Assembly: GCA_029570205.1 (NCBI GenBank)
Contig: JAKQSI010000042.1
Location: 116,936-149,124, forward strand
Direction: 5' to 3'
Source: Candidatus Omnitrophota bacterium
Lineage (GTDB): Bacteria > Hinthialibacterota > Hinthialibacteria > Hinthialibacterales > JAKPRU01
DNA length: 32,189 bases
Made by a program: the position numbers and the translations under genes. A model generated the notes under the pieces. The model was not told the DNA's origin and did not search any database. It saw nothing but the letters and a program-made list of their open reading frames with translations. Position 1 is the first letter of the stretch, and the number at the start of each line of letters is the position of its first letter. Positions 12,602 through 17,940 of this stretch are shown piece after piece.

Positions 12602-13768
12602 TCAAAACACATCCACTATCGCCGCACCGGAGCCGGGACGGGTTACATAAATCTCCGGCTCACGTCCCGTCTTCCGGGCATAACGGCTAATAACATGCGC
12701 GCAGAATTGGTCCAGGCAGGATCTCTCAACAAGACTTACCGTGCATCCGCCGAACCCCGCGCCGGTCATCCGGGATCCGGCAACTCCGCGACATTCTATC
12801 GCCAGATCCACCAGCAAGTCGAGTTCCGGGCAGGAGACCTCATAGTCATCCCGAAGGCTCCTGTGGGATTCCAACATCAGCCGCCCGAACTTCGCCGGGT
12901 CGCCGCTCTCCAATGACCGCACGCCTTCAAGAACACGCGGATTCTCCGTCATAACATGCCTGCATCGGCGGTATACCGGATCGCTCATTCGTTCCCTGCA
13001 CATTTCCAGATCGTCGAGACTCGCATCGCGCAGCGCACAGATTCTCTCGCCGAACTTCTCTCGCAATACGTGGACGCCTTCCCGACACTGTGCGCGACGA
13101 ATGTTGTATTCGGATCCCGAAAGATTTCTCTGCACCTTGGAATCACAGATGACTATCTCGGTATCCTTAAGATGTGCGGGGACTTGCCGAATCTCCAGGC
13201 TCCGGCAATCCAGAAGCAACGCATGGTCTACCTTGCCGAATGTAGACGCAAACTGGTCCATGACTCCGCACTGCACGCCGACATACATATTTTCGGCCCG
13301 CTGACACAGCAAAGCCATCTCGCGATCTTCCATCGGCAATTGAAACATTTCGCGGAGAACCGTCCCTGTGGCTACCTCTACCGCCGCCGAACTGGACAAT
13401 CCCGCCCCCAGCGGCACATCCCCGCCGATGACCGCATCCCAACCACCGGATGCATACCCTTCCTGCTGAAATACCGACACAACGCCCAGCAAATAATCCG
13501 ACCAGGATAATTCTGTACCTCGATGCAAATCGTTTACGTCCGATTCATGCCTTTCGTTGTAGTTCAAGGAAACCAGACAGATTCGTGTATCTTCACGCGC
13601 CCGCGCCAGGATCCATACAGCCGGTTCAATCGCGCATGGAAGAACAAATCCATCGTTGTAATCGGTATGCTCCCCGATCAGATTCACACGCCCCGGTGCA
13701 CGGCCCAGCTTGGCGCCCCAGACTTCGCCGAATTCCTCTTTCCAGCGATCCAGTAGTTGTTGAATCAT
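12602..13768 (-). CDS. galK: Galactokinase
   Basis: The 388-residue cytoplasmic enzyme phosphorylates alpha-D-galactose at C1 with ATP, the first committed step of the Leloir pathway. All GHMP kinase signatures are present: the galactokinase signature GRAPGRVNLIGEHTDYNDGF (residues 22-41), the ATP loop DVPLGAGLSSSAAVEVA (about 117-133), GVMDQFAS with the catalytic-type Asp, and the C-terminal SRMTGAGFGGCTVSLVE. The length is normal for the family. The ATG at 13768 overlaps the galT stop as ATGA, so its translation is coupled to galT; a longer open frame to 14011 is only overlap with galT. No galE or galM is beside it. It is the last gene of a dnaE2-galT-galK unit. Confidence 0.97.
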   Translation of the reverse strand: MIQQLLDRWKEEFGEVWGAKLGRAPGRVNLIGEHTDYNDGFVLPCAIEPAVWILARAREDTRICLVSLNYNERHESDVNDLHRGTELSWSDYLLGVVSVFQQEGYASGGWDAVIGGDVPLGAGLSSSAAVEVATGTVLREMFQLPMEDREMALLCQRAENMYVGVQCGVMDQFASTFGKVDHALLLDCRSLEIRQVPAHLKDTEIVICDSKVQRNLSGSEYNIRRAQCREGVHVLREKFGERICALRDASLDDLEMCRERMSDPVYRRCRHVMTENPRVLEGVRSLESGDPAKFGRLMLESHRSLRDDYEVSCPELDLLVDLAIECRGVAGSRMTGAGFGGCTVSLVERSCLDQFCAHVISRYARKTGREPEIYVTRPGSGAAIVDVF

Positions 13769-14772
13769 CTCTCTATCTCGCCTTGTGCCTTGCGGAAAGC
13801 CACCTGTAACTCTTCCGCTTTCTGTTCCGGATACGATGGATTGCAGTGCGCATTTCCAACGGTCTCGCAGGTCGCGCAGTACTTGATATTGTCCGGTCCG
13901 CGATGCAACGGCGTGAACTTTACATAAAACCGAAATCCGGGATATTCGCGCGGCTCCGTCGGCCTCTGGTGCAACGACATCATAAACGGTAACTCGAATC
14001 CGTATAGACAATTGTATGTACGCACCATTCGGCGAATCGTCCGCATCAACTGCAATCCCCTCGCGTCGTCAAAATCCAATAGAGATACTTCATCGCTGTT
14101 CGGATGAATGTGTACCTCATAAGGAAAATCCGCAAAAAACGGAATAAATGTCGTAAACTCCTCCTCCTGAAAAATCACACGCAAACCGTCCTCTATCTCC
14201 CGGTCCCGGATGGCATTCAATAGATTCTTTCCCGTTCGCCTGTAATACTCCTCGGCTTGTCGCAATTCTTTCTCCAGTCGTGGCGGAATAAATGGAAATG
14301 CGTACAGTTGTCCGTGGGGATGCGGCATGGTTACGCCAATCACGGCTCCCTTGTTCTCGAAAATCAACACATATCGAATTTCCTTCTTCTTTCCCAAAAA
14401 CTCATACCGTTCCCGCCATAGCCGAAACAGATCCAGCAAATGGTGATCCGGCAGATTTGCAATGGAACCGTGATGATCCGGCGTGTACAGAATTACCTCG
14501 CAATGCCCGCGCGCAGGCAAAACATGATAGAGATCACGGTCCGGCTGCGTGGTCTCCCGTGGGGGGTCCGAAAGCGCGGGGAAATCGTTCGGATAGGCAT
14601 ACACCCGGTAATGCTCCGGTACTTTTCCCGATCCCGGGCAGAACGGGCAGCCGTCTGTCGGCATCTGGGGCCGCGCCTGGCGGTGTCCGGCGGTCATTAC
14701 ATAGCGGTCCTCGAGCGGATTGTAACGCAGTTCGGTCAAGATATTTTCTCCGTATGGTGATCGGGAAATCAT
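13765..14772 (-). CDS. galT: Galactose-1-phosphate uridylyltransferase
   Basis: The 335-residue HIT-superfamily enzyme exchanges UMP between UDP-glucose and galactose 1-phosphate. The active-site motif HPHGQ is at residues 151-155 (within TMPHPHGQLYAFP), so H153 is the expected nucleophile that carries UMP. Zinc-site residues are visible: C42 and C45 (CPFC) and H151. The substrate-side strand PFFADFPYEVHIHP and the C-terminal YPGFRFYVKFTPLHRGPDNI complete the two HIT-like halves. The length is as usual for bacterial GalT. The start ATG at 14772 overlaps the dnaE2 stop as ATGA, and its own stop overlaps the galK start in the same way, so all three are translationally coupled. Confidence 0.96.
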   Translation of the reverse strand: MISRSPYGENILTELRYNPLEDRYVMTAGHRQARPQMPTDGCPFCPGSGKVPEHYRVYAYPNDFPALSDPPRETTQPDRDLYHVLPARGHCEVILYTPDHHGSIANLPDHHLLDLFRLWRERYEFLGKKKEIRYVLIFENKGAVIGVTMPHPHGQLYAFPFIPPRLEKELRQAEEYYRRTGKNLLNAIRDREIEDGLRVIFQEEEFTTFIPFFADFPYEVHIHPNSDEVSLLDFDDARGLQLMRTIRRMVRTYNCLYGFELPFMMSLHQRPTEPREYPGFRFYVKFTPLHRGPDNIKYCATCETVGNAHCNPSYPEQKAEELQVAFRKAQGEIER

Positions 14773-17700
14773 ACAGGCGTGGGACTCGGCAGAACAGTTC
14801 GCACCGCATGAACATTGACCACAAAACCGTTCCGGTTCTCGAACGGTTCCAGCGTCCCGTGGTATTCGAGAACCCCGTTTCCGGCTGTCAGGCGACCGTA
14901 TTGATGGTATACCGGCGGAAACAGAACCAGCTCCGCAATGCCGGTCCGATCCGCCACCGAAACAAATTTCATGTATTCCCCTTTCAGAGTTTTTGTGGCC
15001 CGCCGTTCGACAATTGTTCCACAGATCGTGACAGTCGCATTCGGATATTGGGGCAAGGAAACAATCGGCGTGTATGGCCGCCAGTCGAGATACCCATCGT
15101 AATAGTCCAGCGGGTGCCCCGACACCGTGAATCCGAGCGATTCCATCTCGATTTCCATTTTTCTGCGAAACGGATAATCACGATGCCCGCGCAACATGGC
15201 GAAACGGGCCTCATTCTCCGGTTCGAATAGGGACATCTGCGGGCTGGATGCGTTACAGGTTCCAGCTCTGGTGGGCCGGCGGGTCAACGATTCCATCTCC
15301 CAGAGCAGGGCAGGGCGGGGAACTCCCCAGCTGTCACCCGCGCCGCAGCGAATCAGCGCGCGCAACACCGCCGGATCCATCCTGACCCGCCGCATCAGAT
15401 CCTCCGGCGACTTGAACGGCCCGCGAACACCGCGTTCCGCCACAATCTGCCGGGCCACCCTGCCGGGCACATCCTTCACCTGTTCCAGCGGAACACGGAT
15501 CTGATTCCCCTCAACCGTGAATCGCGCCGCGTCTGAGGCATTAAAATCGGGCAGCAAAAATCCGATGCCCAACTGCCGCGCTTCCAGTGTGTAAACAAAC
15601 CGCGAGTAAAATCCCCTTCCGCTTGACAGCGCCGCCGCCAGAAACGCCGCCGGGTAATGCGCTTTCAAATACGCGGCCTGGTACGCCAGAATTGCATACG
15701 ATGCCGAATGCGCCTTATTAAACGCATACCCGGAGAACTCCGTGATGTACCTCCAGACCGTGTCGATCTCTTTGTCCGCGTATCCTTTTGCGCGAGCGCC
15801 CCGCCGGAATTCCGCCTCGAATTCCTCCACCGTGTTCCGGCAGTTCCATTTGGTAAGCGCCCGACGAAGAAGGTCGGCGCGACCCAGGTTCATTCCCGCG
15901 AATGCGTGCGCAATCATCAGCACATGCTCTTCATAAACCATCACCCCGTAGGTACGTTCTAACACCGGTTTCAGCGCCGGATGCGGATATGTCACCGGCT
16001 CTATCCCCTGGTATCGCCGCGAAAATTGCCGCATTTTCCCGTGGTTGCTCGCGCCGGGACGGATAATCGAAAGCGCCGCGATCAGGCATTCCATATCGCG
16101 GCAATTCAACATCTTCAGCAGGTTGCACATCGCAGGCGATTCGATCTGAAAACATCCCCGTGCCTGCCCGCCCGCGATCAGCTCCCAGGTCTTCGGATCA
16201 TCTTCCGGGATTTCATAAGGATTGATCTCTATCCCATGCTGTTGCCGGATTGTCTCAATAGTCTCTGAAATCACAGTCAGCCCCGCCTGACCCAGCAAAT
16301 CGATCTTAACCAGCCCCAGTTCCTCCACCGGCTCCATATCGAATTGCGTGACAATTGGTCCCTTCGCGCTTTTCTGCAAAGGCACAAGATCGGTCAACGG
16401 TTGCCGGCTGACCACCAATCCACACGGATGCATCCCGGTGTGACGGGGCGCTCCTTCCAGGCATTTGGCAATCGCCAGAAGTGTCCGCAGCGGTTCCCGG
16501 TCCACCGGCAAATCGGAGCACTCCGGCAGCACATGAATTTTCTCCTCCAGCCGCTCAGCGGAACCATAAGGCAGTCGTTTGGTCAGACTGCGGATTTCCC
16601 GTTCCGCAAGGCCGAGAACTTTGCCGACTTCCCCGATAGCGGTCCGCGCGTGCATTCGGACCATGGAACAGATCGTCGCACAGTGATCCGCCCCATACCG
16701 CTGATACACATACTCCACCATCTCATCCCGACGGTCCCATGGAAGATCCAGGTCGATATCCGCCAGGCCGCTGTGAATCATTCGTTCGGGGTTGAGAAAC
16801 CGTTCGAAATAAAGATTGTATCGAACCGGGCAGACATGGCTGATCCCCAGTGCATAGCACACCATGCTGTCGGCGGCGCTGCCCCGCGCAACTGCCCATA
16901 TCCCGCGACGGTGCGCCTCACGGCAGATATCCCAGGTCATCAGGAAATACTCACTGTAGCCCACTTGCTGAATGATCCGCAATTCGTATTCCAGCCGCTC
17001 GCGAATCGGTTCCGACAAATCGCCATAACGTTCAACAGCCCCCGCGAAACAGAGCTTCCGCAGGTAGGACGCCGCACTCTCCCCCTCCGGCAGCGGAAAA
17101 TGCGGAAAAATCGTCCGCCCCAGCGAGAGCGGGAGTTCACACCGCTCCGCCGCGCGAAATGTGTTCTCCAACACCTCCGGGTAATCCCGAAACCGGCGCG
17201 CCATCTCCGCCGGTCCCGGCAAATCCAGCGACAGGCGAAGTTCCTTTTCGGGATGTCGGTAATGCAGCGCGGTTCCCGTTCGAATAGACACAAGAATCCG
17301 GTACAGCATTTCATCCGCCGGATCGACATAGTGCGCGTTCGGCACGGCAAGGCACGCAACACCGACCCGTCGGCCCAACGCCGCAATTTCGGACAACAGC
17401 CAACGATCACGGCTGTCCGGCCCCCAGTGCATCTCAAGGAAGAAATCCTCCGCGAAAATCTCCCGAAATCCGGTTGCTTCCTGCACAGCCTTCTCACCCT
17501 GCCGGGCCAGTATTCCCCGCGCCGGCGGCCCTTTCCGACACCCCGAAAGACACAGCAATCCCTCACGATGATTTGCAACTGCCTGTCGCGAGATCCCTTC
17601 CGGATGATCGATCAGGAAAGTAATCAGACGGCTCAAGTTTCGATATCCGACTCCGTTCTTAATCAACAGCACAATCCGGCTTCCGTCATCCAGCGAAACT

Positions 17701-17894
17701 TCCGCTCCCAGAATCGGCTTGATCCCGCGCTTCTGGGCCGCCTTGTAAAACGGTACAGCGCTGTATATCCCGTCATAATCGGTGATCGCAATGCCGGGCA
17801 TCCCAAACCGAGATGCCGCCCCCACAAGGTCCTCCACCGAGGCCGGGCTGCTCAGGAACGAGTAATAGCTATGCACATGAAGCGGAACATACAT
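14769..17894 (-). CDS. dnaE2: DNA polymerase III alpha-like subunit, error-prone DnaE2/ImuC type
   Basis: The 1041-residue protein has an N-terminal PHP domain (LHVHSYYSFLSS, residues 5-16; GIAITDYDG, 34-42), the C-family polymerase palm with D379 and D381 (LADIDLDLP) and D532 (LVKIDLLGQ), the helix-hairpin-helix region, and a C-terminal OB fold (VTICGTIVERR...GEYMKFVSVAD). It ends right after the OB fold and lacks the tau-binding tail of replicative DnaE (about 1160 residues), which with its length points to the DnaE2 type used in translesion synthesis. The PHP motif reads TDY, not TDH, so the PHP metal centre is probably impaired. GGTGAG precedes the ATG at 17894. A promoter with a LexA-like palindrome lies just upstream. 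No imuA/imuB genes are near. Confidence 0.87.
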   Translation of the reverse strand: MYVPLHVHSYYSFLSSPASVEDLVGAASRFGMPGIAITDYDGIYSAVPFYKAAQKRGIKPILGAEVSLDDGSRIVLLIKNGVGYRNLSRLITFLIDHPEGISRQAVANHREGLLCLSGCRKGPPARGILARQGEKAVQEATGFREIFAEDFFLEMHWGPDSRDRWLLSEIAALGRRVGVACLAVPNAHYVDPADEMLYRILVSIRTGTALHYRHPEKELRLSLDLPGPAEMARRFRDYPEVLENTFRAAERCELPLSLGRTIFPHFPLPEGESAASYLRKLCFAGAVERYGDLSEPIRERLEYELRIIQQVGYSEYFLMTWDICREAHRRGIWAVARGSAADSMVCYALGISHVCPVRYNLYFERFLNPERMIHSGLADIDLDLPWDRRDEMVEYVYQRYGADHCATICSMVRMHARTAIGEVGKVLGLAEREIRSLTKRLPYGSAERLEEKIHVLPECSDLPVDREPLRTLLAIAKCLEGAPRHTGMHPCGLVVSRQPLTDLVPLQKSAKGPIVTQFDMEPVEELGLVKIDLLGQAGLTVISETIETIRQQHGIEINPYEIPEDDPKTWELIAGGQARGCFQIESPAMCNLLKMLNCRDMECLIAALSIIRPGASNHGKMRQFSRRYQGIEPVTYPHPALKPVLERTYGVMVYEEHVLMIAHAFAGMNLGRADLLRRALTKWNCRNTVEEFEAEFRRGARAKGYADKEIDTVWRYITEFSGYAFNKAHSASYAILAYQAAYLKAHYPAAFLAAALSSGRGFYSRFVYTLEARQLGIGFLLPDFNASDAARFTVEGNQIRVPLEQVKDVPGRVARQIVAERGVRGPFKSPEDLMRRVRMDPAVLRALIRCGAGDSWGVPRPALLWEMESLTRRPTRAGTCNASSPQMSLFEPENEARFAMLRGHRDYPFRRKMEIEMESLGFTVSGHPLDYYDGYLDWRPYTPIVSLPQYPNATVTICGTIVERRATKTLKGEYMKFVSVADRTGIAELVLFPPVYHQYGRLTAGNGVLEYHGTLEPFENRNGFVVNVHAVRTVLPSPTPV

Positions 17895-17911
17895 GACGGC
17901 TCACCGGATAT

Positions 17912-17940
17912 ATTGTACATCTGTTCAGTATCCGATGCAA
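17912..17940 (-). promoter_or_regulatory. Putative promoter and LexA-like operator of dnaE2-galT-galK
   Basis: On the minus strand TTGCAT (17940-17935) and TACAAT (17917-17912) are 17 nt apart; the -10 matches 5 of 6. A 14-bp imperfect palindrome, TGAACAGATGTACA on the minus strand (17927-17914), overlaps the spacer and -10. It has the GAAC-N4-GTNC shape of the Gram-positive LexA box, with one mismatch in the second half-site core. It lies about 20 nt before the ATG. Confidence 0.45.

What the first reader, a model, noticed from the sequence alone, without database searches (positions are those of the whole stretch)
17912..17940. LexA-like palindrome on the promoter of dnaE2-galT-galK
The minus-strand TGAACAGATGTACA palindrome overlaps a TTGCAT-N17-TACAAT promoter 20 nt before an error-prone polymerase gene. 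Its GAAC-N4-GTNC shape is near the Gram-positive SOS box (GAAC-N4-GTTC), and dnaE2 genes are classic LexA targets.
Basis: partly seen in the sequence, partly recalled or inferred. Interest (0 to 1): 0.6.

Follow-up and report, generated by a model that had tools for sequence, protein, structure and literature searches.

The report
LexA operator before SOS polymerase operon
The palindrome is very probably a genuine DNA-damage (SOS) control site: the same box recurs, twice, on the promoter of the genome's own lexA gene and before its other repair-polymerase genes, so this uncultured bacterium likely switches on a spare DNA polymerase when its DNA is damaged, by a known kind of switch.

Summary
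The 14-mer TGAACAGATGTACA is present (17914-17927, minus strand). Within the window the loose GAAC-N4-GTNC shape means nothing (3 hits, 4 expected); genome and relatives settle it. The genome has one LexA, whose promoter carries two such boxes (TGAACAGATGGTCA, TGAACAGAAGTGCA). The box also stands before a small-ORF/dinB operon, a catalytically dead Y-family polymerase, a Hel308-like helicase and a zinc-ribbon gene; recA has a weaker form. The box is kept at these places in a diverged sister species, and tandem boxes occur at lexA promoters in another family of the order. So it is a LexA operator of the Gram-positive type (TGAAC-N4-GTTCA) in an uncultured lineage labelled Candidatus Omnitrophota. 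Corrections: the polymerase is a short second DnaE that fails the curated error-prone DnaE2 model and forms a clade apart from DnaE1 and ImuC/DnaE2; no imuA-imuB cassette lies beside it, and likely partners sit elsewhere under their own boxes; the -35 (TTGCAT, 3/6) is weak. galT and galK follow with 4-nt overlaps and probably ride along. Verdict: real; new member of a known kind. LexA binding and damage induction remain untested.

The parts
17914..17927 (-). LexA operator (SOS box) TGAACAGATGTACA, 11/12 to TGAACA-NN-TGTTCA
   Evidence: Sequence; same motif twice at the lexA promoter; kept in sister genomes G001 (TGAACATAAGTACA) and G002 (identical)
17912..17917 (-). -10 element TACAAT, overlapping the box
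   Evidence: Sequence; invariant in the three-species alignment; promoter role inferred
17935..17940 (-). possible weak -35 element TTGCAT, 17 nt before the -10
   Evidence: Sequence; only 3/6 to TTGACA, not found by the promoter scan; first four bases TTGC kept in G001
17900..17905 (-). likely ribosome-binding site GGTGAG
   Evidence: Sequence, conserved in G001 and G002
14769..17894 (-). second, short DnaE-type DNA polymerase (1041 aa: PHP, Pol3-alpha, fingers, HhH, OB; clamp-like motif QMSLF; ends after the OB region)
   Evidence: Pfam, NCBIfam, tree; the genome also holds a full-length DnaE1 on C120
13765..14772 (-). galT, overlapping the dnaE-type gene by 4 nt (ATGA)
   Evidence: Pfam, TIGR00209; same junction in G001 (L108)
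12602..13768 (-). galK (start re-assigned to the ATG at 13768, overlapping galT by 4 nt)
   Evidence: Pfam, TIGR00131; start inferred from the reading frame

Best explanation
The palindrome is a LexA operator. In undamaged cells a LexA dimer would sit over the -10 region and keep the dnaE-galT-galK transcript low. After DNA damage, RecA filaments would trigger LexA self-cleavage and free the promoter, giving a burst of a spare, short DnaE polymerase for translesion synthesis. The polymerase probably works with a catalytically dead Y-family protein (contig C16) and RecA, and perhaps with a small ImuB-C-like protein made with DinB; each of these is under its own copy of the box (recA's is weak). 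galT and galK probably follow passively as downstream genes. Shown here: the box, its recurrence before lexA and repair genes, its conservation, and a LexA with the family's cleavage-site and catalytic residues by sequence. Inferred: binding, repression, induction, the polymerase complex and the passive role of gal.
For: One lexA in the genome. Two boxes in its promoter, one between TTGACA and TAAAAT and one 13 bp after it. TGAACANNTGNNCA occurs at 13 places in 4.39 Mb (14 strand hits) against 4 hits for the reversed control. Sites lie before lexA, the window's dnaE, the small-ORF/dinB operon, the inactive PolY, a Hel308-like helicase and a zinc-ribbon gene. All of these are kept in sister species G001, sometimes with changes at weakly conserved positions only, and at the dnaE gene the box is kept while the DNA further upstream has diverged. 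Boxes at the lexA promoters of six genomes of the same order, mostly in tandem. recA has TGCTCAAATGTTTA in G000 and G001 and close variants such as TATACAAATGTTCA in five of six f2 genomes. Published Gram-positive motif GAAC-N4-GTTC (PMC3323433).
Against: No binding or expression data. The -35 is weak. The box is not recognisable before the only more distant ortholog in the class, in G009, where the lexA boxes themselves have drifted to TGTAC-N4-GTACA-like sequences. recA's box is weak in the window's genus (9/12). About nine sites scoring 11 or more are expected genome-wide by chance, so single sites without other support cannot be trusted.
Confidence: 0.93

Rival explanations
1. A chance palindrome: such a shape occurs now and then, and its place before a polymerase gene is coincidence.
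For: The loose shape is no more common than expected in the window; some genomic sites of the same strict pattern lie inside genes.
Against: The same motif lies in the promoters of lexA (twice), the dinB operon and the inactive PolY and is kept across species; about 0.0002 sites of this quality are expected per 100 bp.
Confidence: 0.03
2. The site is an operator for a different repressor, for example another S24/CI-like regulator or a galactose regulator acting on galT-galK.
For: Two sugar genes lie in the operon; some relatives carry extra LexA-like proteins.
Against: The window's genome shows only one LexA-family hit; the boxed loci with recognisable function are lexA plus repair or replication genes, none of them sugar genes.
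Confidence: 0.04
3. The box is a LexA site, but the polymerase is an ordinary replicative or redundant DnaE and not a translesion enzyme.
For: It scores higher on DnaE1 models than on the error-prone model and has a canonical-looking clamp motif QMSLF.
Against: The genome has a separate full-length DnaE1 (about 1175 aa); this one is short, SOS-boxed, and its clade-mate in G014 lies directly behind a Y-family polymerase gene.
Confidence: 0.2

Closest known systems
LexA/SOS regulon of Gram-positive bacteria (GAAC-N4-GTTC box; B. subtilis, M. tuberculosis)
   Same: Same palindrome core and spacing, box over the promoter, lexA autoregulation, translesion polymerases among the targets
   Different: Found in an uncultured lineage labelled Candidatus Omnitrophota; outer T..A conserved (TGAAC-N4-GTTCA) with the right half degenerate at two positions; recA only weakly boxed in this genus
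imuA-imuB-dnaE2 (ImuABC) mutagenesis cassette
   Same: LexA-controlled second DnaE plus a catalytically dead Y-family homolog
   Different: No cassette: the polymerase sits with galT-galK; the dead PolY, an ImuB-C-like small ORF and dinB lie on other contigs; the polymerase is outside the ImuC clade
DnaE2B-iPolY-RecA and DnaE2X-iPolY-ImuB-C-RecA modules (PMC12926913)
   Same: Second DnaE without an imuAB cassette, with an inactive PolY that has a clamp motif and a RecA-NT-like tail, RecA, and possibly a standalone ImuB-C-like small protein
   Different: Assignment to DnaE2B or DnaE2X could not be tested; the parts are dispersed under separate boxes

Membership tests
LexA-controlled SOS regulon | A LexA protein with HTH, Ala-Gly cleavage site and Ser-Lys dyad is encoded | tested here: met
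   TIGR00498 177.5 bits over cut-off 110.95; sequence shows GRVPAG, GDSM and ATVKTY
LexA-controlled SOS regulon | Same operator before lexA (autoregulation) | tested here: met
   Two boxes on the lexA promoter in G000, G001 and G002 and similar boxes in six f2 genomes
LexA-controlled SOS regulon | Same operator before recA | tested here: inconclusive
   9/12 box between -35 and -10 in G000 and G001; 9-11/12 boxes in five of six f2 genomes
LexA-controlled SOS regulon | LexA binds the site and damage induces the gene | not testable with these tools
   Needs gel shift and expression data
Gram-positive type LexA motif | GAAC-N4-GTTC core | tested here: met
   GAAC-N4-GTAC at this site (one base off); GAAC invariant and GTTC-like right half over the collected sites; motif published in PMC3323433
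DnaE2/ImuC error-prone polymerase | Passes the curated error-prone polymerase model NF004225 (cut-off 939) | tested here: not met
   634.5 bits; reference DnaE2 proteins of Thermomicrobium and Burkholderia reach 1030.9 and 1517
DnaE2/ImuC error-prone polymerase | Falls in the ImuC/DnaE2 clade | tested here: not met
   Separate 8-row clade (SH-aLRT 97); ImuC clade 100, DnaE1 clade 100; unrooted, so a sister relation to DnaE2 is not excluded
imuA-imuB-dnaE2 cassette | imuA and imuB next to the polymerase gene | tested here: not met
   Neighbours are galT and galK and a two-component pair upstream; the inactive PolY is on C16. A genome-wide search for imuA was not made
DnaE2B/DnaE2X-iPolY-RecA module | Inactive PolY with clamp motif and RecA-NT motif, co-regulated | tested here: inconclusive
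   C16 protein lacks the catalytic acidic residues, has QILLF and a tail resembling RecA-NT, and has a LexA box; complex formation not tested
DnaE2B/DnaE2X-iPolY-RecA module | Standalone ImuB-C protein (DnaE2X) | tested here: inconclusive
   92-aa ORF before dinB; its G009 homolog hits DUF6504 only at E 0.023, and hhalign with ImuB C-termini gives probability 2.6% (two near-identical rows)
DnaE2B/DnaE2X-iPolY-RecA module | Polymerase groups with DnaE2B or DnaE2X reference sequences | not tested
   The reference sequences of PMC12926913 were not available

The most novel reading that the evidence does not exclude
The SOS polymerase here belongs to a DnaE lineage that is neither DnaE1 nor ImuC, and forms a dispersed mutasome (DnaE, dead PolY, ImuB-C-like small protein, RecA), each part with its own LexA box, in a regulon that also includes a Hel308-like helicase fused to an OmpR-type DNA-binding domain.
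Probability: 0.3. Interest if true: 0.55.

Novelty: new member of a known kind. Interest (0 to 1): 0.4.

Why it matters
It supplies a well-supported LexA motif and a first predicted regulon for an uncultured lineage for which no LexA study turned up in the one literature search made. The box tied together the scattered parts of a likely mutagenic polymerase. It shows SOS control falling on a short DnaE outside the classical DnaE2/ImuC group, and suggests that LexA motifs differ between families of one class (TGAAC-N4-GTTCA in f1 and f2, TGTAC-N4-GTACA-like in f3), which bears on how LexA specificity evolves.

Tried and rejected
Searching the loose GAAC-N4-GTNC shape in the window gave no signal, and GAACNNNNGTNCA genome-wide gave a long noisy list (108 against 60 for the reversed control). 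The first DnaE tree contained wrongly read rows and was redone with corrected frames. A profile comparison of the 92-aa ORF with ImuB C-termini was not significant. The box was looked for before the G009 ortholog in both motif forms and not found. The perfect palindrome on C59 (TGAACATCTGTTCA) lies just after what looks like a 5S rRNA gene, with no clear target, and was not counted as support. Strict-pattern hits inside genes or without clear promoters (C52, two on C88, C89, C108) were treated as unsupported. Assignment to Candidatus Hinthialibacterota was considered from genome size and kinship but not tested; only the record label Candidatus Omnitrophota is reported. Structure prediction was not used.

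Full report
Observation. The minus strand of 17912-17940 reads TTGCAT, 17 nt, TACAAT, with TGAACAGATGTACA at 17927-17914 inside it and overlapping the TACAAT; the ATG of a 1041-aa ORF (14769-17894) follows 17 nt after the TACAAT. The loose shape GAAC-N4-GTNC is not enriched in the window (3 against 4.07 expected). Scored as the 12-position palindrome TGAACA-NN-TGTTCA it has 11 matches, is the only site of 10 or more in the window, and such a site is expected about 0.0002 times per 100 bp. The -35 is weak (3/6), and the promoter fails a simple sigma-70 scan. In the inactive-PolY and helicase promoters a -10-like hexamer lies immediately before the box, so the true -10 here could also lie a few bases upstream; either way the box covers or abuts it.

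Genome test. The window lies in a 4.39-Mb, 131-contig genome (93% complete). It encodes one LexA (C38, 177.5 bits). Searching TGAACANATGTNCA with one mismatch returned 19 strand hits against 1 for the reversed control, two of them in tandem on the lexA promoter: TTGACA-CTGAACAGATGGTCAG-TAAAAT, then TGAACAGAAGTGCA. The strict form TGAACANNTGNNCA gave 14 strand hits (13 places) against 4. Supported places are: the window's dnaE; lexA; an operon of a 92-aa ORF and dinB (box between TTGACA and TAAAAT); a Y-family protein on C16 whose box overlaps its likely start codon just after TATAAT; a Hel308-like helicase with a C-terminal OmpR-type domain on C86; and a 62-aa zinc-ribbon-like ORF on C128 with two boxes. 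recA carries TGCTCAAATGTTTA between TTGACG and its -10.

Conservation. In sister genomes G001 (89% identical polymerase) and G002 (96%) the dnaE box is kept as TGAACATAAGTACA and TGAACAGATGTACA; in G001 the changes fall only in the middle of the box, while the DNA further upstream is largely diverged. Boxes before lexA, the dinB operon, the inactive PolY, the helicase, the zinc-ribbon ORF and the C78 regulator are also kept in G001. In six genomes of another family of the order, lexA promoters carry boxes of the same type, mostly in tandem, and recA carries TATACAAATGTTCA, TAAACAAATGTTCA or TACTCAAATGTTCA in five of the six. In G009 (a third family) the two lexA boxes read TGTACGTCTGTATA and TGTACTTTTGTACA, and no box of either form was seen before its dnaE ortholog. 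The two closest named records bear the label Candidatus Omnitrophota (JAKPRU, JAKPYU).

The polymerase. It has PHP, Pol3-alpha, fingers, HhH and a weak OB hit, a clamp-like motif QMSLF, and ends after the OB region. The genome has a second, full-length DnaE on C120. It does not reach the curated error-prone DnaE2 cut-off (634.5 of 939) although two reference DnaE2 proteins do. In a tree it groups with short second DnaEs of G001, G009, G014, G045, G047, G053 and G058 (97), apart from ImuC/DnaE2 (100) and DnaE1 (100) (SH-aLRT only, unrooted). In G014 the clade member follows a Y-family polymerase gene on the same strand. A 2026 survey describes DnaE2B and DnaE2X polymerases that lack imuA/imuB and are associated with active or inactive PolYs, RecA and sometimes a standalone ImuB-C protein (PMC12926913). 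The C16 Y-family protein fits that picture: it lacks the catalytic acidic residues, has QILLF and a tail resembling the RecA N-terminal motif, and is closest among the compared proteins to the G014 PolY (26%, E 1e-20). The 92-aa ORF before dinB is found in G000, G001 and G009; in G009 it lies between lexA and dinB. These are also the genomes of the class with the short DnaE found (G002 has that DnaE, but the ORF was not found in its fragmented assembly). The likeness of the ORF to ImuB-C rests on weak DUF6504 hits and is unproven.

Operon. galT begins in the stop codon of the polymerase gene (ATGA), and the same junction is kept in G001; galK probably starts in the stop of galT. Co-transcription is inferred from these overlaps.

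Verdict. What needs correcting is the gene name, and what remains open is direct proof of binding and induction. It is a new member of a known kind.

Noticed in passing
L130:2106-2119 and downstream ORF (G000 C86): A Hel308-like SF2 helicase with a C-terminal OmpR-type (Trans_reg_C) domain has a LexA box in its promoter, kept in G001 and G002; no paper in the searched library holds the words Hel308, LexA, bacteria and SOS together.
   Followed up: partly
L131:4311-4499 (G000 C128): A 62-aa zinc-ribbon-like protein with two LexA boxes before it, conserved in G001 and G002; no significant family match.
   Followed up: partly
L129, minus strand between 5085 and 4413 (G000 C2); L151:3275-3523 (G009): A small ImuB-C/DUF6504-like ORF directly before dinB; in G009 the order is lexA-small ORF-dinB. 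Within the class it was found only in genomes that have the short DnaE.
   Followed up: partly
L011:1501-1514 (G000 C78): A LexA-like box lies just before a sigma-54-like TGGCAC-N5-TTGC promoter of a sigma-70-region-4-like regulator; the box is kept in G001 and G002.
   Followed up: no
L076 and L078 (G005, G006): Short S24 (UmuD-like) genes in family f2 have boxes TGAACATTTGTTTA and TGAACATTAGTTCA upstream.
   Followed up: no
L067, L069, L070, L071: LexA motifs seem to differ between families of the class: TGTAC-N4-GTACA-like before lexA in f3, and a TTGCAT..TGTGCA-like sequence before lexA in f4.
   Followed up: partly
L132:3839-3852 (G000 C59): A perfect TGAACATCTGTTCA palindrome stands just after what looks like a 5S rRNA gene, with no obvious target gene.
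   Followed up: no
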